Source of the DNA: Allomyces macrogynus ATCC 38327
Lineage: Eukaryota > Blastocladiomycota > Blastocladiomycetes > Blastocladiales > Blastocladiaceae
DNA length: 64,000 nucleotides
Assembly (NCBI GenBank): GCA_000151295.1
Contig: GG745339.1
Coordinates: 89,665-153,664, forward strand
Direction of reading: 5' to 3'
Position 1 is the stretch's first letter. Every line of letters begins with the position of its first letter. Both the position numbers and the translations under genes were made by a program. Below are positions 12,848-34,296 of the stretch, in pieces. Under the pieces are notes generated by a model. That model did not search any database. It worked only from the letters and a program-made list of their open reading frames with translations, and was not told the origin of the DNA.

Positions 12848-14400
12848 TCAACCATCTGCCCTCCCCCCCACCACGAGGTGCTTGAGGTCCGGATCGGCCA
12901 ACGCAAAAGACGTGCACAGCTGATACGTGTTTTCGCTGCGCTGGAAAAACTGATCGGGGTCCGTGATCTGCGTCAACTGGTGGGCAACAACACGCGCAAG
13001 CGCGCAGGACGTCAGTCGTTGCCAGATCAACCGGATCCTAGTTGACAGACGGAACAGAACCGTACCCGCATCTTGCACCCAAACGCCGTCTTGCCATCGA
13101 GTTCTAAGAACGCCGTGGTCGCCTTGCTCGACCGCATCTCATTCGTCACAAACATGTACCGCAAATTGGTTCCGGGCACCGGTTCAAATGACCGGTCCAA
13201 GAAGGGCCACGTGCCGTTCACGGCAAAGTGCCGCGTCAAGTCGTTGGCACTGACCTTCGGGAACGGGGGGTTAATGACGACCAAGTAAATCTCCAATGCG
13301 TTCTTTCGCGAGCCCATTTTCGCCGCAAACGACTTGGACACGGGATCCAGGGGCTCGACGCAGGCCACCGACAATGAATCCGTTGCGGCTCAAGGCGTGG
13401 TCGACGACACGCCGAGGATCGGCCAATGGCATCAGCGCCAGGACCATGGTACCCGTCTTCAAAGTCGATCCGGGCCGAAACGCGGCGGGGACATCGCGCG
13501 ACTCGAACAGGGACTCGAGACGATTCACGCCACGGCCAAGACCCCAGTAGGGGACGTTGGTGACGCGGAACTAGAGCATCGTCGGCCGCGCCAAGTCCAG
13601 CGGGATTAGGGGAGAAATCACGGGCGCGAGCGACCGTGCTGGAGGAGACCGCGGCCGGCGCGCGCGTGGGGAGCGGGATCTCGACCGGAACGGGGAGCGC
13701 GAGAATGTTGGCGGTGCGAACGACGCGACGATGGTGGGCTTCTCGAACGAGCGGTCTTAGCATGCCGCTCGAGCGTGAGCGCGAGCGTGAGCGGGGCCAC
13801 GACCGGGGCGAGCGAGACCGGGATCGTCGCCGAGACGGCAAGGATTTTATGTCACGGCAGTCACGACGAGATCGTGAGCGACTGCGTGGGCGCGATTTGG
13901 GCGACCGCGACCGCTTGGATCGCGGCGGCGAGCGGGACCGTGAGCGGGATTGAGAGCGAGATAAGCGGTGCGAATTCCGCGTTTCCTCGGAAGGCACAGG
14001 CACCACCGAGGGCGCCGTCGTGGGTGCCAATTGAGGTGCGGCCGCGAGGTTCAATTGTCCGTGGCTCGCAGCAGGCGCGGGAGGAAGAGCAGCTGCAGCA
14101 TTCGATGGCGGCACGGCAGCAGCACCGTTCGTGGCGGCAAAGTGGTGGGCAGGCAGCAACGGCATTCATATAGCCTGCAGAACCGGCTGGGACAAGCGTG
14201 CGTCCAAGGTGCGCGTGCTGCTGCTGTTGCTGCTGCTGCAGGGTCAACAGGAGCATCTGGGCCAGTTCCGGCTTGTCCTGCGCGAGCGTACAGAAGATCG
14301 GATTGGTCGCCAAGTCAGCGACGCTCACTGGCACGCTCGTAGGTGGTTGAGGAGCCGATGCGGCACTGTGCGGCGCGACATACGGTCTGTGTTGTGCAGC
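12848..14400 (-). pseudogene. RS/RRM-like family member, copy 1, disrupted
   Basis: Minus-strand paralog of the intact gene at 14642-16392. Order visible: an ADLATNPIFCTLAQ...LAQMLLL segment (copy 2 has ALATNPIMQSLAQ...LTQLMLA), a Gln run, an Arg/Ser-rich region (SRSRSRSPPRSKRSRSP), RRM-like domain 1 (VNRLESLFESRDVPAAFRP), RRM-like domain 2 (ALEIYLVVINPPFPKV, TWPFLDRSFEPVPGT) and a C-terminal helix (ITDPDQFFQRSENTYQL). Lesions: an in-frame TAG at 13571-13573 where copy 2 has Glu in VLEF; a frame change between RRM-like 1 and 2 near 13355-13375; and another frame change near 14165-14200. An 89-nt intron at 12977-13065 (GTACGG...CCAG) still splices in frame. The 5' part is not found past an acceptor at 14401. 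A non-functional relic is my inference; sequencing errors are less likely given several independent lesions. Confidence 0.7.
14217..14245 (-). repeat. CAG/CAA repeat encoding polyglutamine
   Basis: Short trinucleotide run within copy 1, read as QQQQQQQ on the minus strand. Confidence 0.7.
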
Positions 14401-14641
14401 CTGCAAGAGCAATCGCTGCCTTCACTAACAACGAGCAAGCTCGATCAAACTCGTCGCTGCTCTCGCTCAAGTCAACATCGGGCCAACGTCCTTTGGAAAT
14501 CCTCACGCTTGCTGCAACGCTTTGGACGGCGGCACCTGGTTCCCTGTGAGCTGCAACGACGACTTCCTTGCTTTGAGCTGCGACGGACAACGACGATTGC
14601 CTTGCCCTGACGAGAGCCTGGCGGACGGACGCTTTGGCACA

Positions 14642-16392
14642 ATGAATGCTTACGGCGGCGCACCTCCCTTGAACGGCCCGGCGCCCACGATGCCCACTTC
14701 GGCACCGATACCCAATTCGGCACCGATGCCCGCGACAGAACTGGTGCCCATGCATGGAGCCATGCCCACCGCACCGACGCGCCATGACGCTGGGGTATGT
14801 TCGTCGTCATGCGATGCGTTGAGGACGACCAGGGCCACGCAAACTGACCATGGACGGCTCTCTTTGATTAGTTTACCATCAACATCCAGTTGCGCTACTT
14901 GCCGACGACGAATACGGGCGAGCGTGCGCGCATTGAAATGCACGACCCCATGGTCACGGTTGCCACGGATCCGCCGGGCACTTCTCTTTCCGTTTCGCAA
15001 GCTCTAGTCCGCACCGACGTTGCTTGGCCGTCATTTGTGCAGGTTCTTCTCCAACAGCTTGTCCAGTTGCCGGCGAGTGTCGAGCAGTCGGTGCGCATGG
15101 CTGGCGGCATGTACTTGCACACCGTGCCTCCTCTCCCTTCTCCCGTTGCTCCAGCACTGGCCCCGCAACGGCAACCGGCATCGGCTGCTCTGAATGCGCT
15201 CGGCGCACTGGCGACAAATCCGATCATGCAGTCGCTTGCGCAATCGAACCCAGTCCTCACGCAGTTGATGCTTGCTCAGGTGGCCCGCAGTTCAGTGTCT
15301 TCAGGATCGTTGCCCGCTCATTCTGTTCCGGGTTGCGGCGATCGCCGTCGTGGGCGCAGCCGGTCGCGGTCGCCATCCCACGGCCGTGGTCGTCGTCGCA
15401 GTAACACACGCTCGCGGTCCCCACTTCGCCGCAGTCATTCCGGCCGCCGGTCCCCGTCACCTCCCGCTCGCATGCGCCGCGGCAGCCCTCCTCGGCGTGG
15501 GAGTCCTCTTCCTCTTCTGGGGCGCGGCAGCTTCCACGGCCGCAGCGGCAGTCGCACGCGCAGCCGGAGTCCCTTCGACCGGCGTGGTCCGGCGTCGTCG
15601 TCGGGTTCGAATTCCCCTGGCGTGCTGGAATTCAAGGTGGTCAATTTACCCAGTTGGAAAGCGTCGTTCAATGGCCGCATCGAGCCCTTTTTTGAGCATA
15701 CAGGGGCGCGCGCGCGCTTTGAGCCGACGGGACTCGGGACAGGGATTGTGTGGCTCGAATTTGATCCGGCCGCGCTCGATGTCGAGACGGTCGTGCGCCG
15801 CACGTTGGCACGGTCGTGGACGGTTTTTGGTGGACGGCCCTTGATTATTGAGCCGGTGGATCCGAAATGGCGTGGGTTGTTGCGCGAGACGCCGAAACCG
15901 GAGATTTATGTCGTGATCAATACGCCGGGACAGCACGAGGCGCCGCTCAAGGACGTGACACGGCACTTTGATGTCGACAAGGTGCGCCGTGAATTGTTGG
16001 CGTCGGATGTGCAGGCACACACCGCGTCGTTATTTCATTTTAGCACGCTTGCTCACTCCACGTCTGTGCTCCGATTGTTTTAGGTGTGGCCCTACCTCGA
16101 CCGTGCACCGGCCTACATTCCCGGCACGACCTTGTCCTACACGTTCATGACCGTCGAGAACCCGCCGCGGCCCAACCTGTTGATGGACCGCGACGGGATC
16201 ATGGTGCTTGGCCACAAAGTGCGTGTGAAACGCATCGAGGACCCAGTCTCGTTTTTCCGTACGCCCTACCAGTTGCACGACATGTGCATGCAAATGGCGC
16301 GCGCCGACCCCGAGTTGAACAAGCTCGTGGAACATGCGGTCAAGTCAGGGCACTTTGGCGACGGCGGACCGGGACCACGCGGCCGGTCCTAG
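14642..16392 (+). CDS. Intact member of a lineage-specific RS/RRM-like protein family (copy 2)
   Basis: Three exons (14642-14794, 14872-15981, 16084-16392) give 523 residues in frame; introns are GTATGT...TTAG and GTGCGC...TTTTAG. Order: a short Pro/Met-rich lead (APIPNSAPMP), an N-terminal domain beginning FTINIQLRYLP and ending VEQSVRMAGGMYLHTVPP, a conserved ALATNPIMQSLAQ helix, an Arg/Ser-rich region with GRSRSRSPSHGRGR and SRTRSRSPF (SR-protein-like), then RRM-like 1 (VLEFKVVNLPSWKASF to WTVFGGRPLIIEPV), RRM-like 2 (PEIYVVINTPGQHE to GIMVLGHKVRVKRI) and a C-terminal helix (FFRTPYQLHDMCMQMA). RNA binding or splicing-speckle localisation is inferred from the RS plus beta-alpha-beta-like layout; canonical RNP aromatic residues are not evident. 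It is the only copy in the window without a lesion. I do not recognise a named family. Confidence 0.75.
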
Positions 16393-17002
16393 TTGGTGTA
16401 CTTTGGCCGGGGCCATGTCGCTTAGTCGAGTTGAGAGCGGTTCTGCTCATGTGCAATGCGGTTGCTACATCGTGGACCGCTTCCAGCTGGTGAAGAAGCA
16501 TGCGCTCGATCGACTTGTCGTCTTCCCAAGTTGAATGTTGTTTGTTGCTGATGCTGTCGTTCCTTGTTTTTTTCGGGTCGTGTTGGTGAGTTGTCTTAGT
16601 TTTTGGTCGTGCTATTGCGTTGTCTCTTTTGATCGTCACCTTTCTAAGGCCTCGTTTCACTTTTCTCGTTCGTTTCACTGTCGGAAAATGAATGCGTTGT
16701 TCATGCTCCAGCTAACATGTGTGAGTGAGCACACTGTCGTGCGCGGACGCACATTTGGGCGAGCAAGCGTTGATCGTTGTCCTCAAGGTGACGATTTCTT
16801 CGTGGATCTGTTTCTTGCACCTCGCCACGGACCCGATTGAATACTTTTGACTGCCCCCCTCCCCCTCGGTTTGTTACGTCGTCTCGTTTTGGTCATGCAG
16901 TTGATGCCCGAGACATTGTTTCGCTGGCTCACGTGTGATCCCTCTCGTTCATTCCAGTTGTCCCAAAACAATCACGAGCACAATCGTGATATTGACCTCT
17001 CT
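16393..17002. other. T-rich flank between family copies
   Basis: Plus-strand T-rich sequence (16540-16700) suits the 3' UTR of copy 2. No gene recognised. Confidence 0.4.
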
Positions 17003-17296
17003 TCATGCATCATTGAGCGCCGCCAATCGCTCGCAGACCCCACGCTCGAGCGCCTCCTTGCTGGCAAACATCGTCTTTGGGTCGTCGATCGGGACAACCT
17101 ATGTGGAGAACCGTAGCACGTCAGCGTCATCAATCAATCCTCCTCCTCCTCCTTGTCCCCAACGCGAATCCACATCGCCACCAAACGGAGCTGCAACCAA
17201 CGTCCCTTGAGCGTGCGACACTTGTACTCGAACCCGTCGAGGCACTTGCCATTCCGAAGAATCATCGCCTTGGTCGTCATGGAGCGCTGGGCGCGT
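17003..17296 (-). pseudogene. C-terminal fragment of an RS/RRM-like family member (copy F)
   Basis: Reads MTTKAMILRNGKCLDGFEYK, like the end of RRM-like 2 in copy 1 (ATTAFLELDGKTAFGCKM). After a possible intron ending CACATAG it continues VVPIDDPKTMFASKEALERG, the family C-terminal helix, to a TGA at 17003-17005. A TGA lies directly upstream of the first segment. On the same strand near 17640-17765, INIYLSTTPISII resembles the family N-terminal domain, so a gutted copy may span 17.0-17.8 kb. This rests on short similarities. Confidence 0.45.
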
Positions 17297-17949
17297 CAGA
17301 GTGCGCGTCGAGAGGTTATGGCCAAATTGGGCATGTTTGGAGCACATCGAGGTGTGACAGCTGTGCGGTCGAGCCAGGGGCAGGACGGGCGTCGCGTGCG
17401 TGGAAAATGCACGGTGTGCACGGCCATGTACGCGACGCGTGCGAGGCAAAAGAATCGTGGCGCGTGGCGCGCACGGCCATGTACGTGACGCGTGCGCGGC
17501 AAAGGAATCGTGGAGCGTGGCCCCTGCTTAGACGCGCGCGTGTCATGTGCCCACCGATCAGCGTGAGCGGGCGTGCGAGCAGTGCGTGGAGAATGCACGA
17601 TGATTGGCCGCACGACAGTTCGAGCACAATGCGACTTCGGCGTCGCATTGCTGGATCCAGAGAGCGTGGTCGGCACCGTAGCGCATCGGCAGTGATGAGC
17701 GAAAGACGCGGGTCGGATCGTATAATCGAAATCGGCGTAGTGGAGAGGTAGATATTGATTGGAAGCGTCTCGGGTAGAGCACGAGCGGTGGAAAGTCCTT
17801 CTGGCGCGCGTAGTGCAGCTGTTGGAGACGATGACGATTGCGGTGTGTTGTCCGGCGCGTTCAAGTCGTGGGTGCGAGAGGATGTGCCCCGACGGCGGGA
17901 GTCGATAAATGGCAGAGCACTGGACGTGGATGCAGCAACTTTGTGGTTG
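17297..17949. other. Repeat-bearing remnant region
   Basis: Between the C-terminal fragment and the MITE-like element. Contains the 52-base direct repeat and a possible N-terminal-domain remnant on the minus strand; no intact gene. Confidence 0.4.
17419..17520. repeat. Two-unit direct repeat, 52-base period
   Basis: Units at 17419-17467 and 17471-17520 share gcacggccatgtacg, gacgcgtgcg, ggcaaa and gaatcgtgg, with only a few mismatches. A recent local duplication in non-coding or decayed sequence. Confidence 0.85.
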
Positions 17950-18237
17950 ATCACTCCCCCCATACTTTCCACCCCACGACCACGCGAGACACCACTCGCA
18001 ACAGAGAATAGTAGATGTAGAATAACTTGTGCTGAAATGCCATGTTTCTTGGCTCGGTGGAAGTTTGCCATGGATGGGGTGCTCTAGTTGCAAGAATAGC
18101 ATGGCGACCCTGTCCACTGTGCAACTTCCACCAAACCAACTTCGGCGGCAATTTGACCCAAAACATTTTACACCCCCGATTCTTGATTGCAGGTGGTAGC
18201 TTGCGCGGTCATGGGGCGGAAAGTATGGGAGGGTGAT
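17950..18237. mobile_element. MITE-like element with about 44-bp terminal inverted repeats
   Basis: The left end (17950-17993, atcactccccccatactttc onward) and the reverse complement of the right end (18192-18237, atcaccctcccatactttcc onward) match at roughly 37 of 44 positions. Total length is about 288 bp with no transposase, so it would be non-autonomous. Flanks read TTGA at 17947-17950 and TTAA at 18237-18240, hinting at a TTAA-type target duplication with one mismatch; the exact boundary is uncertain. It sits just upstream of the NTPase/nuclease gene and beside a broken RS-family copy. Confidence 0.7.
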
Positions 18238-18600
18238 TAAAATTTATTCAGTATTGCATTATCGTGACAGCCACTTTAGTGAGAGACATTGGGAGACATC
18301 TTGCGATCAACGGGCCAAGTGCCAGCCGCAACACCGTCCTGCATCGCACAGTCGGACCATCGTCGCCCACGACTGCCCACGACGCAATTCTGCTCTGCAA
18401 ACGAGGACTACCCGCAATCGTCTCATTTGATCAGTATCAGCGATTCGCGCCAACTCGACAGCCACACACGCCGGCTCAACCTTCACCACAATTGCCGACC
18501 GCGCAACTGGACCTTGCCGTCCCGCTCGCACCTCGCACGACAGTGCGGCACGCAATTCGCCAACGCTGGTATCCATCGGCTTGAACATGCTGTTTCGAAA
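18238..18600. other. 5' flank of the NTPase/nuclease gene
   Basis: No independent gene is supported. Open frames on both strands lack domains or good starts. Confidence 0.35.
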
Positions 18601-21600
18601 ATGTCAACGAACACATGCTGCAATCAAAACGTAGAAACAGACCACGGACCGGACCTTTGTGCGATGGCCAAGTCGACTATTTTACCAACGGACGTCAGCG
18701 ACATGAAACCTGGTTTGTTGACTTGTCAAGGATGTGCTGCATGGCCACCCCTCACCTGGCTTGTTCCTTTCCTCAGACGAGGTGCTGTTCACCCTTGCAG
18801 CTGCAGTTGCGGTGTTTTTGCGCAAGCGCAAGCGGCACGAAGAGTTCATCACGAACTGCAAGTATATCATCAATGCCCTCAACGCCGACGATACTGCCAA
18901 GCTGCTCGCGCTTGCTACCGCCGAGCTGTTACCTGCCGATGCAGAGCGCCAACTTGACGACTTTTTTCGGTTGTTTCCTGGCCCTCTCAAGTCAAACAGC
19001 GGGTTTGGCGAAGAGACTGACCAGCCAGAGGTCAAAAAACTACTGGGTGAGCTCCTTGGTTCTTTCGAACAGTTATTCGATGCCGAAGTTGTCGACCCGC
19101 CAGTCAAGGGCTGCGACACCACGGTTTTTCGTGATTTCGCTGCAAAGATTGGCAAGCTTGCCTGTCAGTCCAATCCGAGCCAGATTTACTTTCCCGGTGC
19201 GACGTATTCATGTTGCTGTTGGGTGGACGTTCGAGCACTGACATTTTTTCTTCTTTTTTGGCTAGGCACAGCAGTCATCCAGAGCTCGGGCTTTGGTAAG
19301 AGCCGCATCTCAACACAAGCCCTTACCAACGCGGGCACTTTCACGCTATACTTGAACATGAACAAGAACGATTCGACCGGGTATCCTCGTCCAACTCCTG
19401 GGGGCATTCTCCGTTTTGTCCGTCCTTTGCGATTTTTGGGTTGTGCCTTGACTCAGTTGCTTGCTAACATTGCTGGTTTCTTGATTTTGTTTTTTTGCGT
19501 GTAGCTGCACGGCTCGCCCGACGACCAACTCCGGCCCATGATCCTGATCACGATACTCCTTCACGCAGCAGCAGTTGCTGAGAAGGTTGGCGTGCCGCCG
19601 AGCCGGTTTCTCGAGCTCCAAGTCGTCCGTGCAACCCGACACGACGATTTGACAGCAAGGTTCTTTGAACTCGTCGAGGCTGCCGCCAAGCAGCTCTTGA
19701 CCCTCTCGCTCAAGAGCACGAACAAGGCGACGAGTGTGCTCAACTATCTTGGCCACGTCTTTGGCCATGCGCAGCGCACCAAGGACAACATGGACGAAAA
19801 GGGGTACGAGGAGATTGCTGTCGTGACAAAGCAGATCAACGACAGCGACATTTCGCCGTCGTCGCCATCTTCCTCGTTGCCCCCGCCGTCCTCGCCATCG
19901 TCATTGCCCAGTCTTGGTTCGGCTACCCCGAAAAGAACGGCCACTGCCGGTCGGGACCAAACGTTCCAGGAATCGGCGACGTGGGTGGACCTGTTTGCAC
20001 TGTTCGAAGATCGCATTCGCAATGATGTGTTTGCCAAGGTCGAGCGGCAGCAGCCGAGCGAGCGCCTGCAGCCGCAGTTGCGCTTTGCGTTTGTGCTCGA
20101 CGAGGCGCGCTCGCTCTACGAGGGCAACACGTTCCACGCCGTCCGCCGCTGCTTCCGCACCGCTGCCGTTTACCTGAAGTCGCTCAATACGCCCTTGGCG
20201 TCTGGTGCAGGACGCACGTCGGGCGCGGAACCCAATGCGGCTGGATACGTTTCGCCGTTTTTCGTGCTGTTCCTGGATACGGTGAGCCGGATTGGACACT
20301 TTACTCCCATTCCGCGCAATGACCCGTCGGCTCGCGTCGCAAGGCTGGACTTGCCGACCCATGGTCCAATTTTCTACATTGCGCTTGCCGACGCGCTCGC
20401 CTACAAGTGGGCCGACGCCGACGTGGTCAACATGGCCCAAGCATTTGTCCCGGGAATACTTTTCCGGTACGTACCAAGTGCATTGATGGCATTGAGCGAC
20501 AAATGGACAATGTTGACGCATTTTTTTTCCCCCGTAGTTTCGGTCGCCCACTTTGGGCGATCGCGAGACGAGAGGCGTCCAACTGCATTTGTCTTGCTGC
20601 CGTCAAGCTGCTCGGGACGGCGAGTCTGGCCACGCTGCAAAAGTTCCAGGAAAAGCCGACTTTAGTGGACCTGATTTCCGATACCGCCGCACTTGCGCTC
20701 GTCCGGCACCGGCTTCCGTTCCACGTTCACGACACTCAATTGGCCGAAGACATGGTCGCGACGCGCATGGCGGTGTGCACGCGTATCAGCGCCAACCGGT
20801 CGATCATGCACATTACGGCGTTGAGCGAGCCGGTCCTGGCCGAGGCGATTGCGTGGATTTGGTCCGACTACAAGGCCTGCGTGCAGACAGTCGAGCAGTT
20901 TGCCAAAATGTCGCTTCGGGGTGCACAGATCAGCGTCGGCAACGCGGGCGAGATTGCGGCGATGCTGCTCCTGCTCTTGGCCCACGACCACGCGGCCATG
21001 CAATACGGGCCAAACGCGCGAGCTGTTGGCGGTCTAGAACTGCGGGCCAACGGCAACCCGCAGAACCTCAACTGGGTCGAGCTCGACGGGTACGTCAACA
21101 TGGTCAAGGAACTGCCGGCATTTTTCGCAACGCCCGTCCCGGTCGCCGTTCTGTTCCGCGCGCTGTGGGGCACCGCGTTTGACGGCCTGCGCGTCGAGCT
21201 GGGACCGTCGTCGGCATCGGCCCAGGTTCTCGATCGCGGCATGGTTTCCATGACCCATTTTGTCGAGCTGGATTATGTCCCTGAGCCGCGGCACATGCTG
21301 GCCAACTTTTGCCGCGCATGCGCCGTCAAGTGCAAGGCCAACAACGCCGGCTACGACTTGCTGATTCCGGTTCTGATGCCGCAGGAGGACGGGCGGTACG
21401 AGGTTCACGTCGACGCGATCACGTTTCTCGCGATCCAGGTCAAGAACCACGCCAAGCACCCGTTCATGGCCACCGACGAAAAGCGCAGCAAGCTCAACAG
21501 TACGCTCGACTCGTTCTACGGCAACTGGCCCGCGTTCCCGACGCACCCGTACGTGGCCGTGTACCTCGTGCTGCAGAAAGCTGAACAAGAGCGGACCGTG

Positions 21601-21963
21601 CTCCACGTCTACAACAACCCGACCGACGAGGATGCCGACGTCTCCATTGCCGAATTTTGCGCCGAGGTCGAGGGCAACATGGGCCTGCTCAGCGCGGGAG
21701 GGCAGATTGTCCGAACGACTCCAGACGCAGCCGGCATGAAGCTGTCGGTCCAACAGGAGGCCCGTGCGCGCGACGTTTGGAACGCGCTGCAGCCCCTCTG
21801 GACCGACCCGGCGGTTCCCGCGACCGCGGCCGCGCATCTCGTCAAGAGCAAGGGCGGCACGAGCGAGGGCAGCCGCGCGCAGCCGGCGCCTACGAACACG
21901 GCTGCACGCGCGAGTTCGGCCGAGTCGGCGGCGCCATCGTCGCTGCCAACTGGCCAAGAACGG

Positions 21964-21999
<36 letters not shown>

Positions 22000-22401
22000 G
22001 GGGCAGGAGCAGCGGCGGCGACCGCTGCAGCTGCACCGCCGCCCGCAAGTGAAGCGCGGTTTGTCGAGGCGCTGCGGATGTCGGTTCGGAAGCGGCGCCA
22101 GGTCGCGATTGCGGCGATTGGCTTCTCGATTCAGGGGTACCCCGTTCTCCGTGAGAAGTGGTACGAGCCCAGCACCACCGCGGCCGATTCTCTCGCTGCG
22201 CATGACCTGGCCAAGCAATTTGACCTGCTGCTGAACGGCGCGCGCACGCCCTTGACCGAAGACGAGTATGGCAACTTGGCGGTGCCGGCCAAGCTTGCTG
22301 CTTACGACGCAGTCATCGACCAGACGTACTCGGACACGATGATGACGAGCCGTGAGCGCGTGCGGTCGCAGCGCCGTCGGCGGGACCAGGACGACGAGTA
22401 G
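18601..22401 (+). CDS. P-loop NTPase fused to PD-(D/E)XK-like nuclease (Crinkler/transposon-type)
   Basis: Five exons (18601-18712, 18777-19196, 19266-19417, 19505-20466, 20538-22401) join in frame to 1169 residues. The P-loop is split from its preceding helix by an intron and reads VIQSSGFGKSR near residue 180-191, followed by YLNMNKNDSTGYPRPTP, as in the fungal NTPases linked to Crinkler-type effectors. Later comes GRPLWAIAR (about 550) and a helical segment EIAAMLLLLLAHD. Near residues 820-850, YDLLIPVLMPQEDGRYE and ITFLAIQVKNHAK fit the D...QxK core of a restriction-endonuclease-like fold. A poly-Ser tract (about 1024-1036) and a basic tail SQRRRRDQDDE follow. I see no signal peptide and no LFLAK header, so secretion is unsupported. 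The family is thought to derive from transposon nucleases (Zhang, Burroughs and Aravind's proposal). The role could be a selfish-element remnant, inter-organism effector or nuclear defence protein. No frameshift or stop is seen. Confidence 0.7.
21966..21999 (+). repeat. (TCG)n microsatellite encoding poly-Ser
   Basis: About eleven TCG units inside exon 5 of the NTPase/nuclease gene, forming a flexible serine linker between the nuclease-like domain and the C-terminal region. Confidence 0.9.
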
Positions 22402-23193: not shown

Positions 23194-24816
23194 TTAATGC
23201 TGGCTGCTCCCATTGCAGCTGCTGGTGCCGTTCATTCTCTCGCCCTTCTTTTCTCCCTCCTTGCTCTTGCCCTTGCCTTCGCTCAGGGGCTCGTACACAA
23301 TCTGGCTCGCAAACCACCGCTCGGCCTCAACCAGCCTGGCCGTCATGTCCTCGACCGACATGTCCCCACGCGCCACCATCCGCGCGACCGAGGGCTTGGT
23401 GTCGATCGTGTACGTGCCGTACTCGAGCCCGTCCTCGGCGATTGGAACGTACTGCACGCCCTGCCGCTTCAAATCCACCGGGAACGCCGCCGCCCTAGGC
23501 ATGTACACAATGCGCGCGTGCCGCCGCGGCGGGATCAGGAGATCCCCCACGCGCGATGCCGCGAGCTCCGCCGCAGACCGCGCCGGGAGCGAATAAGCCA
23601 GGCCCGCCGAGAACCGGAACTCGAGTTGGTCAAACGAGCCGCCGATATGCGCAGCGATCATGGCGGGCAACGATGCGCTCGGCGGGCGCGCCCCCAGTTC
23701 GCAGAGCACGTAGCACGACTGGTCGGGTGCACCCACAGGCGCGTTCTCGAGCTGGTGCCGCGCGGCTGCGACCGACGGGACACGGAACATTTCAAGATGG
23801 AACGCGAACCGCGACGGCAGGTCGTAGCACTTGAGCAGGCGCGTCGTCGCCTCAATGATCGGCACGTACTCGGCGTCGCCCGGGACCAGCGTCAGGGACC
23901 CGGCGGCGACGCCCTGCGCCAGGTCGAGGTACGACCGCACGCACTGGAACGGCCAGACGGCGACCAGTTTGCCTTGATCGACCAGGCCGTTCACGTGGGT
24001 CATGGTCGCGTTCTCCAGGTAGGCTTCGGCAATCAGTTGACCAGCCATGTCAAACTGGCCTGCTTCCGACGTGAGCGAGGTGCGCAGAAACGCGAAAAAG
24101 TCGGTGCGCAAGTACTTGGTGACGTCGGCAATGGTGCGTAGGATCCGCACGCCAAACGACGCGCACCCGAGCGTCGGCTTGACGATCACGGGCAGCCCCA
24201 CGCGATCGATAAACGAGAGCAGGCACGACGGCGAGTAGATGCGCTGGAATTTGGGGACCGGGAAGTGCGAAGCCACGGCGCGCTTCTTCATGGCCACCTT
24301 GTCGCGGAACGTGACCTATGCCGACCAAGATCCAGAATGATGCCCGCGCCTGTCAACTTCTCTTTCCCTCAAAGGCAACGTCTGATCCGCGAGCTCGTCT
24401 GATCGCGAGTAAACGAAGAATTCCACCCGTACCGTATTTTCTGGCTGCAGGCCCTCCTTGACGCCGAGCATCTTGCGCAAATTCGCGATCCGCAACAGGA
24501 ACTCCTCGTGTTTGCAGTAAATAATATCGATCCCGTGCTTTTTGTGCCAGTCGCGCACAATCATTTCCAGCGACCCGTCAAAGAACGGGTCCTTAATTTC
24601 GAGCGAGGCGACCGTGCGCTTCTTAGCCGCGGTCGACAGTGGGGCCTCGTGGTCGGTGATCACAAACAGATTCGCATCGACACCCGGGTTGATAAAGGCC
24701 GTGATGCCCATGTCGTGGTCGTGGTCGACGGAAGCGCCAGCGTCATCCGTGACGAGGTGCACGTCGGGCTCGTCGATGACCAGGATGTTGAGTGGGCGAT
24801 TGGGCTTGGCGGTCAT
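23194..24816 (-). CDS. ATP-grasp family ligase-like protein
   Basis: 501 residues from two exons (24816-24433 and 24315-23194); the 117-nt intron (GTACGG...ATAG) rejoins PENT to VTFRDKVAMKKRAV, the typical ATP-grasp entry. ATG 24816 is chosen because an in-frame extension upstream is low-complexity. N-terminal part (NILVIDEPD, IIYCKHEEFLLRIANLRKML) is the pre-ATP-grasp domain. The central part has LPVIVKPTLGCASFGVRIL (ATP lysine and glycine loop), LIAEAYLENATMTHVNGLVD (metal/phosphate strand) and RFAFHLEMFRV (metal-binding Glu). The C-terminus is a Lys/Glu/Ser-rich tail. Such enzymes make an acyl-phosphate and join it to an amine or thiol. The substrate is unknown; L-amino-acid-ligase or carnosine-synthase-like activity is only a guess. 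No biosynthetic partner genes are adjacent. Confidence 0.75.
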
Positions 24817-25559
24817 TGTTGGGCGTCGTCGGGCAGGGTTGGAAGCGATCAGGAAGCGCGCAGGACGTGGTGAGCTTGATGAGAGCGTCAAGGCCACCGC
24901 GCCGGGTCGTAGGGAGGAAGGATCGGGGAGGGAGAGAAAGGGAGAGAGAGGGAGCGAGGAGGGACAGCTGCCGCGATTAAATACGGAGCAGGCAAGTTCA
25001 GGGAGCCGAGTGATCAGAGAAGCTTCCATAGAGAAAGAAGACAGAGAAGACTCGAGCGCGGTCACTGTCACCGGCTGCGGCGCTCAAGCTCCCAGGCACA
25101 GCCGATGTTGACAGGGGTTCTATCTTCAGGTCTTGGCGTGAGCAGAGCGACTGCGCCAAAGCGGCATGACGTGGATGCACGTGGCGCAGGGCGAGGAAGG
25201 GCTGGCGCGGGTGCGGTTTCTGGTACGACGCTTGTCGCTGCTGTTACTGGGCATGGTGGTGGACGTGGTTGTTGTTGTCGTTGGCATGCCGTCGATGGCG
25301 GTCGCACGCGAGGTAGTGCAGCCCGGAGCGCTCTGACGGCCAAGTCCACAGAGCAAACCCTGACACCCGGAAACCCTGATGTAAGACGTCGCGCAAGACA
25401 ACAAGGATCATTTCTTGATTCTGCTGTGGGCCAGTCGTTTCAGCAAATGGCACGCGACCATCACCAGCCGCAATTCGCGCCGCCCTCCCCTGATATAAAT
25501 GCAGGAGAGTTCCACACCATCCTTCCGCGTCCACGGCGCTCACGCATTGTCGCGCGCAG
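24817..25559. other. Divergent promoter region
   Basis: Upstream regions of the ATP-grasp gene (minus) and RS-family copy A (plus). Contains purine-rich 24900-24960 and the TATA motif listed separately. Confidence 0.4.
25493..25500 (+). promoter_or_regulatory. TATA box of RS-family copy A
   Basis: ATATAAAT, 60 bases upstream of the ATG at 25560, at a normal core-promoter distance. Confidence 0.6.
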
Positions 25560-26611
25560 ATGACCGTCACTTTTGCCGTGCGCGTGTCGGGCGGCGCGCA
25601 AGCCGGCACGCACGCGCGTCCCGTGCAAGTATGCGAGCCTGTCGTGCTTGCCCAGTATGACTTGACGGGCACGACGACGGCGCGATCTCTCATGGACGCG
25701 CTCATGCTCCATTCGGGCCTGGCGCTCCCGTTTGTGCGCGCCATGGTCGGCGTCGCGCCCAAGCTCGCCGACTCTGTCCGTGCGACGGGTGGAGCCGTCA
25801 CGCTCGTGCCGAACACGACGGGTTGGTACCAGGACGTTATGGGCCAGTGCGTTGTGATTTGCGCGATGAGCAGCGTTTCGCGATTGGTTGGCTGATGTTA
25901 CAGTCGTCCAACACCTCAGGTTGCATCCGCCGCCACCAGCGGTTCAGCCGGAACTGGATTTGAGCTTGCGCTCGCGATCTCCGGATTATGAGCGAGACCG
26001 ACGAAGCCATCGACGCTCACGTTCTTCACGCGACCGGCTCAGCGTGCCTGAGCGCGACGCATCGCACGACCGGTTCCGACATGCTCGAACCAGCAGGTCG
26101 CGGGACCGCTCACCATCGTACTGGCGCTCATCACAATTGAGGTCCAGCGGCCGCCAGGACCGCCAAGCAGTCGGTGTCCTCAACAAGTGGCACAACCGCG
26201 ACCCAACTGACACGCGCTCCGACCGGTGGGAACCCATCACCGCGTCTCCTGCTCCTGATCCGGCTGTGACACCGTCCATGGTCCATTTTTCTCGGCAAAT
26301 TGAGCGGCGCGTCGGCTGCCGACATGGTACGCCGTGCGCTCCGGTGGAGACGGCCGCTCGACCAGGTGTTGGTGCGGTGCGGCGTGCCGCAGTACGTGCA
26401 CTGATCGCGTCTTCATCAACGGAAAGAGAATGCGGGTCCGTATTGTCCATGTTTGGCTGAAATTGTCTGCGTTCTTGATTTACGTGTCGATTGACTGTTT
26501 CGTGGTAGCGGCAGGTTTGTCCCGTTGCATAACGCCAAGGCTGTGTTTGCTGACCCTGATCGTTTGCAGCAGGAGGTTTGGAAGATTGCCGAGCAGGTTA
26601 TATATCGATGA
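25560..26611 (+). pseudogene. RS/RRM-like family member, copy A, probably disrupted
   Basis: Begins MTVTFAVRVSG...ARPVQVCEPVVLAQYD, then ARSLMDALMLHSGLALPF and VRATGGAVTLVPNTTGW, the family N-terminal domain. After an intron ending GTTACAG (about 25904) comes an RS region (YERDRRSHRRSRSSRDR, TSRSRDRSPSYW). RRM-like 1 is not recognisable and only the end of RRM-like 2 remains (TDRVFINGKRMR). An intron with donor GTCCGT at 26436 falls where copies 1 and D have theirs, then FVPLHNAKAVFADPDRLQQE and TGA at 26609-26611. The reading phase across this last intron does not match, suggesting a one-base indel. It could instead be a shorter functional variant with altered splicing. The N-terminal half and TATA box look intact, so transcription is plausible. 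Confidence 0.6.
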
Positions 26612-26907
26612 ATCTCTTATTTGGTCCCCAGTTTCCCCAGCCGGCCCTCTGTCGTTTTGAGAAATCAAATCGTCACAGTTGTTCATGGCTCGTCAAATCT
26701 TTACCGACTTGTTACATGCAGATTTCTCTCTCGTGTGGCGATCACTGGCCACAACTGCAGCGGTCTTGCCGCTCGCATGTACATAGCAAAGCATGAACAA
26801 GAAGTGCTTGCCATGCCGCCACGTTCAGGTCGCTGCACATATGGACATCGCGTCGCATACGGGCCCAACCAGGTGGAGAACGAGGAGAATGGAAAAAAAA
26901 AAAAACG

Positions 26908-27431
26908 TCATTTGACCGCTTCAATCTGAGTTTTGGGCAAACCGAAGAAAGAAACCAGATTTGAGCGTCTCAAGAGCCGGCCCATCAAGCGAAATCCGTC
27001 AGCTTGATCACCACGAATAGCCACCACAACAGTGTTCATGGTGAAGTTGGCTTTGATTGGTCTTGGTCGTCATGGGCGGCTTGATGGTGGTGACTGATGT
27101 CCCCCATCACGTAGCCGATTGCAGCTCGCTTGCGTTCCCGTTCGATCATGTCGAAGAAAATGTTAAACCGGAAGCGCGATCCAAGGCCGTGCTTGCCAAA
27201 CCTGTCTGCCAGCGTCAGGAGCATGTCTGCTTTGAGAGGAACAATGTATTGATTGCTTTGTCCACCCGGCCCACCCTCTTTCGCACGAAAGCATGATTGC
27301 GATGCCCTGACGCACTCGCAGCGCAACTCTGCCTCGACACGCTCCGCCAGGCCTTCAAGTTCCTTGACCAGCCGATCTGGGTTGCGGAAGCATGGTCCCC
27401 ACTTTTTCAACCCGATCCTCTTTCGCATCAA
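26908..27431 (-). pseudogene. RS/RRM-like family fragment, copy E
   Basis: Segments in order on the minus strand: CFRNPDRLVKELEGLAERVE (family C-terminal-helix-like), SRFRFNIFFDMIERERKRAA (RRM-like 1), then TMNTVVVAIRGDQADGFRLM (RRM-like 2 start, compare RDVYVILHSPHHDSFHMM in copy B) to a TGA at 26908-26910. No N-terminal domain or RS region precedes it, and the gene ends before the second half of RRM-like 2. A truncated relic lying directly downstream of copy D. Confidence 0.55.
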
Positions 27432-27512
27432 AGAGAATTCGTCAGTGGAATCACGTCCTACACAGCACGCAAACCAACTCCATGGAAACCGGCGTTGTAT
27501 TGTTGTTTGAAT

Positions 27513-28245
27513 TCAGGCCGTTTCCTCGGCGCGCTCCACCATCTCATCGAGTACTTTGGCGATCCGGCCGGGGTCGGCGGACATGGCCTTGGGATCGGGC
27601 AGGGGAAAGACCTACCAGCACGTCGGCCGCATCTTGATTCAGCCAGACGGACCCACATCACACCACACCACGCCAAAACGAAAATGAATGACCATACCCT
27701 CATTCGGAACCCGGCCAAATCAATTCAGTCGAGGCACTGGGCCGCGTCCCTCCGCGGGCTCGACGGCGCCAGCGTGAGGCACCCATATCTGTTGGACGTG
27801 AGACTGGCCAATCGAATGACCGTGCTGAAGATCAATGTCGTCGACCAGATCGGCGTGCTACATGGCCTTGACGAGCGTATCGAACCGGGAGGCCGGCATT
27901 AACAGCAGGACAAAAACGGGCCGGCCGGGCGGAACCATGAGAGTCGGCGGGCTCAAACTACGCGTTCGGGAGGCCAACGAGGGTCGAGTATGTGAAGGCA
28001 TATTGTGGCTGAGAGCGAAAAAGCACGCTTCGTACCTCCACTCGGGATCCGCCAATAATTATGCCGGAATGGCGCATCATGTCGCCTACAATACTGCAAA
28101 AAGGGTGGAGTCGAGCAAGTCGTCGTCCGGCAGCTGGCGGTCTCCAAGCCGTGGAATTGATATTGTCCTGCGGGCAGCCCATTTGCAGCGAGCGTGAGGT
28201 CCTTGCAAAAGCACTGCTGTGACAACAAAAAGTTGTCAATCAACT
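27513..28245 (-). pseudogene. RS/RRM-like family fragment, copy D, with stop codon
   Basis: Contains the end of RRM-like 1 (SIVGDMMRHSGIIIGGSRVE), RRM-like 2 starting GRPVFVLLLMPASRFDTLVK, and after a GTATGG...GGTAG intron the helix VFPLPDPKAMSADPGRIAKV ending at TGA 27513-27515. An in-frame TAG at 27858-27860 interrupts RRM-like 2, and reading continues in the same frame beyond it (HADLVDDIDLQHG). The exon before the last intron ends FRMR, matching KMR in copy 1 and KRMR in copy A. No N-terminal or RS part is found. Confidence 0.65.
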
Positions 28246-28596
28246 CACGATGTGTGGTTGGCCGAAGTGGAAAGGTTGTGACAAGATGGAATGAACGGCC
28301 CTACGCGTCTGATCTCTGGCATTGAGAACGCTGCAGATCAATCTGGAGTCAGCGTTTAAATCCTTTTCCATCCGCCCGCCGTTTCCTCTTCGCGACAGGG
28401 AAACCGCACGTTAATAGACATGGAGCTGGGCCAGTTGAAAAATGACCTGGCGCGCATGCTCACCAAATCATTGCCCCCTTGGCAACGAACAGGCTGCACT
28501 TGATTGATTTGATGTTGCGGTGCAGAATCTCAACACTTTCTGTCGCCTGTTTGATGAGCGCGAGCCTTTTTAAGCGTGGAATCGATACATGACATG

Positions 28597-31208
28597 CTAT
28601 GACGTGGCCCACAGCGAAGAAACAACAGACCGCGCCCAGATCGCCTCAAGCTCGTTTTCGAGTCGCCTAGGATGAGCGAACACGGCCTTGGCCTCATCCA
28701 ACTTGAACACCTGTGGAGCAAATCCGTCAGCATAAGGCTCGGGAGGCGAGCCATACCGTAGCTGCTGGCCGTCAACCCAATGCTTGTCAAGGTCCTCGAC
28801 GCAGCCCGTATTGTGCAACGGCACGGTCAAGATTGCAAATCTAGCCACGAATACGAAACGTGCCGTCAGCGTCATGCCTCACGAATCCGTGCATAAGGTC
28901 GTCGTACTCGATTTTCGAGCCGAGCACCGTCCGGGCCATCATGTCGAGATCGCCGGTAATGTTGCGCTCGCGCAACGCCTGAACCATCATGTGGAACGAG
29001 TCGTGGTGCGGCGAGTGCAGGATCACATAAACGTCGCGGTCCAGCGGGTGCTCGCCGGGTAAGGGCGCATCGTTCGGATCGGCCGGCTCAAACTACGTGC
29101 ATGGACGAGCATAGGCCTCGTTCAGTCAATATCGCGAACCTTGGAAGGGGCTCGACCCGTCTCGATTCCGTCAAAACGTACATCGCAGCGAGTACAGCCG
29201 ATCACGACGCCAGACTGGCGCATCACGTCCGCAACCACTCTCGCCAAGCACAAGTCAAGTGGAAAACCGGGCCAAAGCGGGTCAGTTCCCCCGCTCCCCC
29301 AGCGACACCAAAAAACAGGCATCTCAAAACGTACTCGTCAGACGCCGACCGAGGGACCCAAAACGTGAGCTCATTGCGCGCCTCATCAGCAAACACGTGC
29401 TGCGGCGGGCACACGTCCCGAAACGCCAAGTTCAGCCGGCCAAACCAGTTGGGATGGCTCATCGTGTCCTTGAGCGTGCCGCCGCTCAGCTCGGCGACAA
29501 TCTTGATCATGGACTTGACCAGCTCGGCTTCAGGTGGAGGAGCGGCCGCACGACGGCCAGAATCGTCGCGCCACAGCACTGGCGACGCGGATCGACGGCG
29601 ACGGCGTGCGTCACGGTCACGACTTGGGGTTCGAGCCCGTGGCCGATCCGACGGCCGACGTGCCCGCTCGTCGCTACGACAGCGCGTGCGACTGCGACAG
29701 CGCGTGCGACTACGACTACGGCTCGCCCTGCGTGAGCGCGGTTTGGTACCGATCCGGCCTCGTGCGGACCGGCACTGCGGTGAGCGCGATCGCGACCGAC
29801 CGCGCACAGGACGGGACCGGCGCTGCCGTGACCGTGACCTCGACCGACTGCGGGCCAAACCAGACCGGCGCGGGCGCGGGTGCGACCTCGACCGTGACTG
29901 TGACCGTGACCGAGACGTTGCGCGGCAGCGGGTAGACCTGCGCTGCCGCGACCGCGACCACGACCGCGAAGCGCTTCAGCGGCGATGACGCTCACGACGT
30001 GAAGGGTGCAATTGCCGCGACCTGGAACGCGACCTGTACCGCGATTTCGACCGCAAAATGGGCCGAGACTTCCGCACCGGCGAGCGACTTCGGTCATGAC
30101 GAGATCTGCTGCGATCCATCCATCGATCGCGAGCGAGCGCGGGGTCGAGATGATGCCAGGTTGAGCGACTGCTCGCGGCAATGCGGGATGCTGCGCGTTG
30201 GTAGGCTTGCAGGGGCACTGAGCGGCGACTGGATGGGTGCGGGCAAGGCCTGAGCGGGTACGGGTGGTGTTTGGATGGGTGCGGACGGGGCATGGACAGG
30301 CACCGGCATGGATGGCGTCGCAGCAGGTGCAGAAATGGCCACTGTATCGCCGAGGCTGCAGGAAATGCAGGGAGCCAGAAGGATGAGCATAGATTCGATC
30401 CTCCCAGGTGGCGAGCTCACCCATACGCGGCCGGGTGCAAGGCGCGGTGCCACTGCGTTGCGGCCGGCACCAACATGGGCACGCCGCCCGACACGCGCAC
30501 GATCTCGACCGTCTTACCAGTCACGCTGATCAAACTCTTGACGAGCGAGCTGGTGGGGTCCGACATCGGGAGCATCTTACGCGCTTCCATGAGAGCCTCG
30601 ACGAGCGAGCGCGCTGCGGTCCTGGTTCTGGCCCACGAGCACGACTGGTTCGCAAACACGCGCCGCAAATGCATGCGCACCGGCCGGCTTGATTGGCGCG
30701 CGAACGGCAAAGAGAATGGCCATCTGCGAGCCGAATCGCGGCGATGTGGTGAGCCACGCCGTGCGCCAGATTCTGGTCGCAATCGTGTATATACCTCGTC
30801 TCCGGCAGCATGACCATCAGCGTGAACAGGGGAAGAATGAGATGGAAGCACTTAAAATGGCCCCGGCACGGCAGCCTTAGTCGTGGTGGACCAGGTCAAG
30901 GAAGGAGCAAGACAATTGGCCGGGTACGACGCTTTGTTGTCAGAAACGGAGATGGAGGGCGGAATCGCAGCAGGCGCGACTTGGTGCTGAATCAATGGCA
31001 TGGCCGGCGTGGAACTGATGTGCACGTTGTTGCGGGCTTGGAACGCGGCGAGGCCGGCTTGTGCAACAGGTGTAGCGTGGGCCGGCGCGAGCCGAATATG
31101 GTTGGTGCTGGGTGCCGCGCGTGCTGCTGTTGTTGGCAGTCGCCATGCCATGCGCGGGAAAAGCGTCGCATTCAACGGCGTGTCGTCGTTGGCCAAGCGC
31201 GCGTCCAT
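28597..31208 (-). pseudogene. RS/RRM-like family member, copy B, near full length but disrupted
   Basis: N-terminal domain: QMAILFAVRAPIKPAG and VCEPVVLVGQNQ, then in another frame ARSLVEALMEARKMLPMSDP and VEIVRVSGGVPMLVPAATQW. The RS region is rich in RSRSRSR and SPQCRSARG. RRM-like 1 has FGRLNLAFRDVCPPQHVF and VVADVMRQSGVVIGCTRCDV. RRM-like 2 has RDVYVILHSPHHDSFHMM and LTVPLHNTGCVEDLDKHW. The C-terminal helix is AVFAHPRRLENELEAIW, with the stop at 28597. Lesions: a one-base frame change near 30611-30625 and an in-frame TGA at 29976-29978 inside the RS region. A Pro/Ala-rich frame upstream (to 31208) may be the first exon. Copies B and C are close in sequence, pointing to recent duplication followed by decay. 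Confidence 0.7.
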
Positions 31209-31396
31209 TTGCGACGAGTTGTGGTCAGTGAACAGTCGGTGGTCAGATTGTTGGGCTCCATGGACGTCGACGCAAACAGCTCCTCTTCAGAATTGATGGT
31301 TTGGTTCATGACGCAACAAGGGCAAGCAGCGTCACATCAGTGAGACACTTCCATTGTTTTCCCCACACTCAACCGTCGACACATTTATCGCACAAA

Positions 31397-31411
31397 CCCC
31401 CCCCCCCCCCC
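31397..31411 (+). repeat. 15-base poly-C run
   Basis: Homopolymer between copies B and C; third such run in the window. Confidence 0.85.
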
Positions 31412-31936
31412 ACTAAAAGATCGAAATAACAGCGCACCCTTGCGCGGCCATGATTACCATCCCTGCAAGAACCATGCAGGCTGTCACGCTGCGCGGGATC
31501 TTGTGCGATCCGAACGCAGATAGGGTGCTGCAAACCCAGACATCAATCAATTCAAACAGGATCCAGGATCCTGTCGTTGGTGAACAAGCTGGCCGCGTCG
31601 GTCGTCTTCAGGATTGCACCGCCGAGAACACGCAGTTACAGCAGAGGGTTCATACAAAGCAACACGCGCATGGGCATCAACTGGACATCGTGATGCGCGC
31701 TTATTCATTATCTCACTCGCAACAATTATGATGATGTCATGATGATCATTAGCCGCCTGGAAAGTTCTTTGATTGGTGCTTGGACATACATTCGAGTTTG
31801 GATAGATGCAGGGCCCCATCTTCCGTTATGGCACTCTCACTCTTGGCAACAAGCACGCAGCTTTGAAAATGGCCAGGGCACAAAAAATGCTCATTTTAAC
31901 ACGAGAAGACCACACTCTCAAAGGCTTTTCCGTTGG

Positions 31937-34201
31937 CTCAAAGCGACCCGTCAACGTACCACTTCAGCATGATCTCCAATTCGGCTGCGAGCCGTGTTGG
32001 GTCCGAAAACGCAGCCTTGGGGTCGTTAATTTGAACAACTACATCTAAAACGGCATAGCCAACCAGATCAGTCGAAGTGCGCTCATCCAGGGAACGTGTC
32101 TCGTCAACCTCAGCAAGGCCGAGTCAAAGCGACCAAGACCAGCGCGTGGAGAACCGGATGTACCCGGAGCTGTTTGCCGACCACCCAACACTGGTCAACC
32201 TCCATGACGTTACCCGTGTTAATCGACGGCACGGTCAACACCGCGTACCTCGAACGCAACACTCGTTGTCAGTCCGAGTGAGTTTAACGAACCCGGCTTC
32301 AGCCGTGCAGGAAAACGAGTACGTACTGAATGGACATGCCCGGGACCGAGCAACCAACCACGTCGAGATCGCCCGCAATGCTTCGCGCGCGCATTGCTTG
32401 GACCAAAATAAGGAACTGGTGGTTCTGCGGCGTGTGCAGAACGACACACACGTCGCGCTGCGGTGGGTGCTCGTCGGGTGGGAGCACATCGCTCGGATCG
32501 GATGGTTCAAACTATGTTCGGTGGAAGCTGGTCAATTTCGCACATCAAAAGTACCCCGCCGTTGGGAAGACGGCATTGCTTCAACGCAAAGGAACGGACA
32601 TCGATACGGGTGGCCCCAACGACGACTCTATTTTGCTGCATCACGTCGGCAACGATCCTTGTTGACCACACATTGAGTCAGAGAAAGCGTGTCCAAGCGA
32701 ATCAATCGCGTCCCCTGCACGTGCCGCTAAACGAACTAACACGCACCCGGCATAGCGCAGCACCCAAAACGTCAGCATGTGCTGCACCTTATCGACCGAT
32801 ACGTGCCGCGGCGTGCACAAATCCTTGAACACAAAGTTAAATCGACCCATCCTCTGCGGGTGCCTCGTTAAGTGGTGCTCATTTCCGCCGGTCTACTTTC
32901 CGATAAACTTGGCCATTTTCTTGGCGAGCTCGTGCGGTGGAGAAGGTGTGTGACCATCGAGAACGGCGTGCCACGTCATGGGCGATGCTGACCGGCGCCG
33001 ACTGCGGCTGCGGCTGCGGCCGCGAATCTTATCGCTCGCGTGCGACGCTGAGCGGCTGCGGTTCCGACTGCGACTGCGCTGGCGCGATTGGGACCGCGAC
33101 TTGCTGCGACTCCGGCGTGTCAATCGCGACCGTGAGTGTGACCGAGAGTGGTCGCGTTTCCGCGAGGACGCATGATGGCGCGACCGCAACCGCGACCATA
33201 CCCGCACGCGGGACCTGCTGCGGCTCCACTAATGTTCACGGCGTGAAAGATGCTGCGGCGACCTCGACCGCGACGAGCGTGCCGGTGAGCGGGTCCGGGA
33301 TTGACGAGATAGATGGCGGTCCCTTGACGGCGTTTGCGGGCGCCCGTCGCGGTGCCTGATGAGGCCACGCGATTCTGGGTTCGCAACGGCTGTCGGAGCT
33401 GGTGCGGGCACAAACAACGTTAGTGTAGGTGAAGGTGCGGGAAAGGGGTTGCAGGGGCTGCTGAAAACAAGGCAGGCACGATGGAAATGGTGTTATAACG
33501 TCCGTTTAGCGGAGTCAAAGACGTACTCGATCGAGGACGAGTGGAGGCGCCACTGCTTCGCGGCCGGCACCGACATGGGCACGCCTCCCGACACGCGCAC
33601 CATTTCGGTCACCTTGGCCGTCACGCTGATCAAACCTTGACGAGCGAGCTGGTGGAAACCGACAGCGGGAGCGCCGTGCGCGCGTCCATGAGCGCCTGGA
33701 CGAGCGAACGCGCTGGTCGACCCTGGTCCCGGTCCCGACTGGCGAGTACAACGGGCTCGCACACTTGGACCGCGTACGGATGCGGGCCGGTGGGCATGGT
33801 TGGTGCGCGGATGGCAAAGAGAATGGCGAGCTGCGACCCAGCCGTAGTGAGATACTTCAACCAACGAATACCAACACCATGCCAGGAAGCGACAAGCGTG
33901 TATGTACCTCGTCATCACCAGCTGCGGCATCAACAGCGGCGTGAACGGGTGCAGGAGGCGCCGGAAGTATCGGCGACGGGTCATGAGCAGAAGCCCCCGC
34001 CAGAGCAGGGACCACGGTCGCGCTTGTTGGTGGTTGCATGTTGTGCGCGAATACAGCGCCGCATTCGAGGGCACGTTGCTGTTGGCCGTGAGCGGATTCA
34101 TGTGCAGCGAGTTGGCCCAGTTCGGTCAAGATTCTGCGCTGTGAATTCCACTCGCTCGCGTTGTGGGTGATGTGATCGGCATGAAGGGAGTCAAGTGTCA
34201 A
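31937..34201 (-). pseudogene. RS/RRM-like family member, copy C, near full length but disrupted
   Basis: N-terminal exon, then an intron (GTACAT...GAAG) before SQLAILFAIRAPTMPTG, VQVCEPVVLASRDRDQG, ARSLVQALMDARTALPLSVS and VTEMVRVSGGVPMSVPAAKQ. The RS region contains RSRSRNRSRSASHASD. RRM-like 1 has RFNFVFKDLCTPRHVSVDKV and RIVADVMQQNRVVVGATRI. RRM-like 2 has RDVCVVLHTPQNHQFLILVQ and VLTVPSINTGNVMEVDQCW. The C-terminal helix is AFSDPTRLAAELEIMLKWY, with TGA at 31937-31939. Lesions: a one-base deletion at 33631-33640 relative to copy B (caaac-cttgacg against caaactcttgacg) that breaks the N-terminal domain, and an in-frame TAG at 32893-32895. Confidence 0.7.
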
Positions 34202-34296
34202 ATCATAAAAAGGTCACACCTACATTGTTTTCACACACGCAAAAGAAATCTATCACAAAATCCAACAGCACGACTGAACGGACAACGCATTCATCA

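What the first reader, a model, noticed from the sequence alone, without database searches (positions are those of the whole stretch)
12848..34201. Lineage-specific RS-domain/RRM-like protein family expanded in one cluster
At least seven copies on both strands share one architecture I cannot match to a named family: a beta-rich N-terminal domain (INIQL..., VCEPVVL, ARSLxxALM, VRVSGGVPMLVP), an Arg/Ser-rich region like SR splicing factors, two degenerate RRM-like domains (YVVIN/YVILHSP starts), and a C-terminal helix (DPxxLxxELE). Copy-to-copy similarity is visible by eye at protein level, and B and C match at DNA level. This is the best candidate for an undescribed family in the window.
Basis: partly seen in the sequence, partly recalled or inferred. 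Interest (0 to 1): 0.85.

Follow-up and report, generated by a model that had tools for sequence, protein, structure and literature searches.

The report
Expanded RNA-binding RS protein family
A water mould carries clusters of dozens of related genes and gene remnants for proteins that look like RNA-binding splicing helpers with an unknown front domain; most copies in this stretch are decayed, but the one intact copy has been kept by selection.

Summary
The window lies in Allomyces macrogynus ATCC 38327: copy 2 is AMAG_07103 and equals my three-exon model. The family is real. Seven C-terminal exons lie at 12.9-32.0 kb, but only 3 of 7 copies show all four modules and only copy 2 has no frame break that I found. 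Both fold as RRMs in the model. RRM2 also matches solved RRMs by profile, E 6e-6 from cluster copies alone. RRM1 does not, so it rests on the fold. RRM2 keeps the RNP1 aromatics in most aligned members. The N-terminal domain gave no match above a cut-off, and its fold is unresolved. "One cluster" is wrong: four contig regions, two homeologous pairs, hold 43 mechanically grouped loci, plus 3 elsewhere. A whole-genome Pfam RRM_1 scan lists none of the four regions. dN/dS is 0.08-0.30 for copy 2 against its homeolog. Best reading: a fast-duplicating SR-related RNA-binding family with an unplaced N-domain, found so far only in Allomyces. Function is inferred; no experiment exists here.

The parts
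14642..14794 (+). Copy 2 (AMAG_07103), exon 1: N-terminus, low-confidence in the model
   Evidence: spliced model equals database protein P0002
14872..15981 (+). Copy 2, exon 2: N-domain, helical linker, RS region, RRM1, start of RRM2
16084..16392 (+). Copy 2, exon 3: rest of RRM2, C-terminal helices, stop codon
14872..15129 (+). N-terminal domain of copy 2 (residues 52-137), no known family found
   Evidence: N profile E 4.8e-28 (this sequence was among the seeds); no Pfam match above cut-off, best PDB sequence E 0.43; pLDDT 49-74 per block over residues 51-130, 33 for 131-140
15181..15297 (+). Helical stretch with NPIMQSLAQSNPVLTQLML (residues 155-193), a weak lead to the Pfam XPC-binding family
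   Evidence: Pfam E 0.16 here, 0.015 in P0003, 0.1 in P0004, all below cut-off; helices predicted at low confidence
15334..15612 (+). Arg/Ser-rich region
   Evidence: 19 RS/SR dipeptides in the protein, shuffle mean 10.2, maximum 20 in 1000 shuffles
15616..15858 (+). RRM1 (residues 300-380), degenerate RNP1
15898..16230 (+). RRM2 (residues 394-470), split by the second intron, keeps the RNP1 aromatics (SYTFMTV)
   Evidence: (pLDDT 62-88 per block)
16231..16344 (+). C-terminal helices (residues 471-508)
12899..14385 (-). Copy A: helical linker, RS region, RRM1, RRM2, C-terminus; N-domain missing; frame changes and a stop
17045..17098 (-). Copy G: C-terminal exon remnant
   Evidence: E 8.8e-7
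25560..26590 (+). Copy C: N-domain (25560-25808) and C-terminus (26516-26590); RRMs not detected
27537..28119 (-). Copy D: RRM1 piece (28024-28119) and weak C-terminal exon (27537-27611, E 0.011)
28636..30717 (-). Copy E: all modules, frame change in the N-domain and in-frame stops; its counterpart at C62:134355-136413 is open from the N-domain into RRM1
31965..33824 (-). Copy F: all modules, frame change in the N-domain and stops
31579..31630 (.). 52-bp piece matching the neighbouring ZIP gene, lying between copies E and F
   Evidence: 84.6% to 34474-34525; a second ZIP-like piece (77.3%, 75 bp) lies at C62:137206-137280
39492..39707 (-).
   Evidence: E 1.7e-13; relative in C62

Best explanation
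A tandemly duplicating family of SR-related RNA-binding proteins, seen so far only in Allomyces. Supported by computation: an uncharacterised N-terminal domain of about 80 residues, an Arg/Ser-rich segment, two RRM folds and a short C-terminal helical motif; purifying selection; segmental duplication before the homeologous regions separated, then decay of many copies. Inferred only: the proteins are nuclear; the RS segment is phosphorylated by SRPK/CLK-type kinases and recruits other RS proteins; RRM2 binds single-stranded RNA through its RNP1 aromatics; RRM1, which lacks them, is a spacer or protein-binding RRM; the N-domain is a partner-binding or self-association module. Copies would thus act as diversified adaptors in pre-mRNA splicing or mRNP assembly.
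Against: No expression, localisation or binding data. RRM1 has no sequence support from cluster copies alone: one PDB hit, Nup159, E 2.3; with founders only E 0.05. The second C30 RRM cut out alone scores just below the RRM_1 cut-off (19.6 and 20.6 bits). The Foldseek tandem alignments have rmsd 8.5-17 over both domains, so they do not fix the domain arrangement, and other ferredoxin-like proteins appear lower in the lists. RS/SR counts in P0002 (19, maximum 20) and P0006 (13, maximum 14) lie within the shuffle range; the annotated A. arbusculus P0003 lacks the RS region (4, mean 3.9), perhaps an annotation error. RNP1 counts for RRM1 rest on 13 of 32 segments. Confidence lowered from 0.62 to 0.60 after the control.
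Confidence: 0.6

Rival explanations
1. Protein-protein adaptors: both RRMs are pseudo-RRMs of UHM or DBHS type and the proteins bind other RNP components, not RNA.
For: RRM1 shows no Y/F at RNP1 positions 3 and 5 in 13 aligned segments (one W). Structure matches include UHMs of SPF45 and CAPERalpha and DBHS proteins NONO/SFPQ/PSPC1. The RRM1 profile with founders hits PSPC1 first, E 0.049.
Against: RRM2 keeps a near-canonical RNP1 in most aligned segments, and its profile matches are mostly proteins named as RNA-binding or splicing factors.
Confidence: 0.23
2. A decaying cluster: in the window the family is mostly pseudogenes and any role is carried by copies elsewhere.
For: Copies A, C, D, E, F and G are broken or partial, while AMAG_08002, AMAG_08004 and the E counterpart on C62 are open over their main exon.
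Against: Copy 2 is intact with dN/dS 0.08-0.30; low dN/dS between E, F and their counterparts (0.15-0.31) suggests that they were constrained until recently.
Confidence: 0.1
3. A genome-conflict or self-recognition family (RNA-level defence, sex or strain recognition) shaped by birth and death of copies.
For: Many tandem loci, most of them incomplete (29 of 46 groups lack a module); restriction to Allomyces in the searches made.
Against: No sign of positive selection: dN/dS 0.01-0.51 in all 16 comparisons, though site-wise tests were not run; no nuclease or other effector domain in the proteins scanned.
Confidence: 0.06

Closest known systems
SR-related splicing factors with an RS region before tandem RRMs (U2AF65, RBM39/CAPERalpha)
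   Same: Order RS then RRM then RRM (for the known proteins recalled); structure matches include U2AF65 RRMs and RBM39
   Different: The NCBIfam models U2AF_lg and SF-CC1 score far below cut-off (6.3 against 310 bits in P0005, 8.4 against 232 in P0006); an additional N-domain of unknown type; no third RRM detected in the window copies; tandem expansion
Classical SR proteins (SRSF1 type)
   Same: RRM and RS modules; the RRM2 profile with founders finds PfSR1 and SRSF1 at E 0.0006 and 0.002
   Different: Classical SR proteins have one or two N-terminal RRMs and a C-terminal RS domain (PMC3173450, passages seen); here RS precedes the RRMs
PTB-type multi-RRM proteins
   Same: The founder-type C30 gene has further RRM-like stretches, read by eye, and its RRM pair finds PTBP2 at E 0.004
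   Different: PTB has no RS region or this N-domain (recalled); the match is weak
UBL/STI1 (XPC-binding) adaptors
   Same: Short NP..Q.LAQ.NP.L.Q motif after the N-domain
   Different: Pfam E 0.015-0.16 in 3 of 5 proteins, all below cut-off; a lead only

Membership tests
RRM superfamily | beta-alpha-beta-beta-alpha-beta fold | tested here: met
   RRM1 and RRM2 in the model; Foldseek matches; VIA covers residues 299-383, that is RRM1, only. Predicted, not solved
RRM superfamily | Score above the Pfam RRM_1 cut-off | tested here: not met
   No RRM_1 hit for P0002-P0006; RRM2 set A5: 2 of 15 members match RRM_1 at E<=1, best 20.6 bits against 20.7. The C30 founder-type protein passes as a whole (23.5-26.8 bits)
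RRM superfamily | RRM2: profile match to solved RRMs | tested here: met
   E 5.1e-9 with founders, 6.3e-6 without; that the top hit, plastid ribosomal protein cS22, holds RRMs is recalled; the RRM of PfSR1 is named in the row, E 0.0006 and 0.013
RRM superfamily | RRM1: profile match to solved RRMs | tested here: not met
   cluster copies alone: one hit, Nup159, E 2.3; with founders best E 0.049
Classical SR proteins | N-terminal RRM(s) followed by a C-terminal RS domain | tested here: not met
   RS lies before the RRMs in P0002, P0004, P0005, P0006
SR-related proteins (RS plus RRM) | RS region and RRM in one protein | tested here: met
   RS absent in the annotated P0003
SR-related proteins (RS plus RRM) | Nuclear location, RS phosphorylation, RNA binding | not testable with these tools
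   needs experiments
U2AF65 / RBM39 family | Match to the curated family model above cut-off | tested here: not met
   far below cut-off
XPC-binding / STI1 domain | Score above the Pfam cut-off | tested here: not met
   best 15.4 against 26.4 bits
N-terminal domain, any known fold | Match to a known fold | tested here: inconclusive
   pLDDT too low; the fold searches were filled by RRM1

The most novel reading that the evidence does not exclude
Allomyces evolved a new RNA-regulator superfamily: a new N-terminal domain joined to RS and RRM modules, multiplied to dozens of loci in four regions that the standard Pfam RRM model does not list, with turnover like that of recognition or conflict genes, acting in RNA-level self-recognition, sexual differentiation or control of mobile elements rather than in general splicing.
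Probability: 0.12. Interest if true: 0.78.

Novelty: new variant of a known kind. Interest (0 to 1): 0.52.

Why it matters
Tandem arrays of RS/RRM genes are unexpected: RNA-processing regulators are usually few and slow-evolving (general knowledge, not tested here). Here 43 mechanically grouped loci in four regions carry pieces of the family, and a whole-genome Pfam RRM_1 scan (150 of 194 candidates scored) lists none of them, so routine annotation is likely to miss most of the expansion, although UniRef calls one member RRM-containing. It gives a fungus with a long experimental history a testable set of diversifying RNA-binding proteins, slow founder-type genes to compare with, and an N-terminal domain without a found relative.

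Tried and rejected
Considered and rejected: chance low-complexity similarity (against it: N and RRM profile E-values and dN/dS); a named enzyme or other Pfam family (no match above cut-off); membership in U2AF or CC1 families; an XPC-binding/STI1 domain (below cut-off). A single-sequence fold of P0002 was poor outside RRM1, where blocks were 50-87. A control profile of RRM1 without founder sequences found no RRM in the PDB; the same control for RRM2 still did. Literature: Allomyces + SR protein + RRM gave 0 papers; Allomyces + RNA-binding protein + tandem duplication gave 0; other listings showed no title on this family; passages were seen in PMC8778642, PMC8476143, PMC5913265 and PMC3173450, with nothing on it. 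Subscription papers and bioRxiv are mostly not held. The grouping is mechanical; it merges some neighbours (for example C22:141230 and 141634, and AMAG_08004 with a remnant at C62:126256) and may split others, so 43 is approximate. The C26 gene holds an assembly gap and was not modelled.

Full report
Source. The spliced copy 2 model (14642-14794, 14872-15981, 16084-16392) equals AMAG_07103 of Allomyces macrogynus ATCC 38327 over 523 residues. The assembly G000 is 54.0 Mb in 75 contigs and the window is C64:89665-153664.

Observation. Profiles for the N-domain, RRM1, RRM2 and C-terminal exon, iterated on six-frame ORFs of the fetched regions, find seven copies between 12.9 and 32.0 kb: A (-), 2 (+), G (-, remnant), C (+), D (-, weak), E (-), F (-). 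Copies 2, E and F have all four modules. Copy A lacks the N-domain: window 14385 and 14412 flank a stretch present as C62:121805-122742. Copies A, C, E and F change frame or hold stops. Only copy 2 reads through. E and F are similar at DNA level. A 52-bp piece of the neighbouring ZIP transporter lies between E and F, and a ZIP-like piece lies at C62:137206-137280. Copies 2, A, E and F all have counterparts on C62. I read this as segmental tandem duplication before the homeologous regions separated.

Not one cluster. The window region aligns with C62 at 67-84% and C22 with C61 at 70-82%. Grouping gives 46 loci: C64 9, C62 18, C22 12, C61 4, and one each on C70, C30 and C49; 17 of 46 groups hold all four modules (mechanical grouping). 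The 9 on C64 include an N-domain 5.3 kb before the window and the one at 39.5 kb. A further N-domain match lies on C26. A Pfam RRM_1 scan of the whole genome lists 133 matches at E<=0.001 from 150 scored of 194 candidates; none falls in the four cluster intervals, nor on the C70/C30 gene. Since 44 candidates were not scored and introns split domains, this is not proof of absence. UniRef names AMAG_08002 RRM domain-containing.

Origin. The C70/C30 pair is a slow founder-type gene: N-domain, an RRM-like stretch, RS, RRM, RRM and a further RRM-like stretch (these two stretches were read by eye, and the first gave no Pfam match). The C30 protein scores 23.5-26.8 bits for RRM_1 against a cut-off of 20.7; its second RRM cut out alone scores 19.6-20.6, just below. 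P0006 of A. arbusculus has the same order of modules as copy 2 and a counterpart on C49, 85-97% identical by piece. An N-domain tree joins copy 2 with AMAG_08004 (support 0.88) and C22 with C61 copies (0.99, 0.97); the C62 counterpart of E joins F of the window (0.98), E of the window being too short to enter (short domain, modest support).

Selection. dN/dS (NG86): copy 2 against AMAG_08004: N 0.17, linker 0.15, RS 0.30, RRM1 0.08, RRM2 end plus C-terminus 0.21; C70/C30 0.01 and 0.06; E64/E62 0.26-0.31; F64/F62 0.15; A64/A62 RRM2 0.19, RRM1 0.51; E62/F62 0.28; E64/F64 0.51. All 16 comparisons are below 1.

Distribution. Three searches of 5.8 billion proteins returned P0002-P0006, all Allomyces, as the only strong hits; two marginal hits had E 0.26 (unnamed source) and 0.30 (an RRM protein of Meristemomyces). 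The search needs shared five-residue words and scored only the candidates sharing most words, so distant relatives may be missed; the C70/C30 gene itself was not searched there.

Mechanism. Best reading: SR-related nuclear RNA-binding adaptors, diversified by tandem duplication. Supported by computation: fold, constraint, duplication history. Inferred: nuclear location, RS phosphorylation, RNA binding by RRM2, partner binding by RRM1 and the N-domain. A whole-genome duplication in A. macrogynus is mentioned in PMC5913265 (passage); I found no paper on this family in the searches named.

Noticed in passing
window 18722-22401 (+): A multi-exon gene with a stretch that looks by eye like a P-loop (GFGKS), perhaps Crinkler-like (recalled resemblance); Pfam gave only weak matches for two of three pieces.
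   Followed up: partly
window 34253-35400 (-): ZIP zinc transporter gene (PF02535, E 1.3e-31 for 34300-35121), the neighbour of which a piece was copied into the cluster.
   Followed up: yes
window 36804-40052 (-): ORF with a distant copy of the family's N-domain (39192-40052), followed by a long ORF with some RS-like stretches; no Pfam match for either.
   Followed up: partly
window 17947-18240: Imperfect palindrome of about 300 bp (66% to its own reverse complement), perhaps a MITE-like element.
   Followed up: no
window 6626-8380 and 10014-11372 (+): Folate biosynthesis gene (FolB and HPPK domains) and a sodium/bile-acid symporter family gene; both also lie in the aligned C62 region.
   Followed up: partly
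G000:C26:128634-133115: Another N-domain gene broken by an assembly gap, with an RRM-like stretch, read by eye, after the gap.
   Followed up: partly
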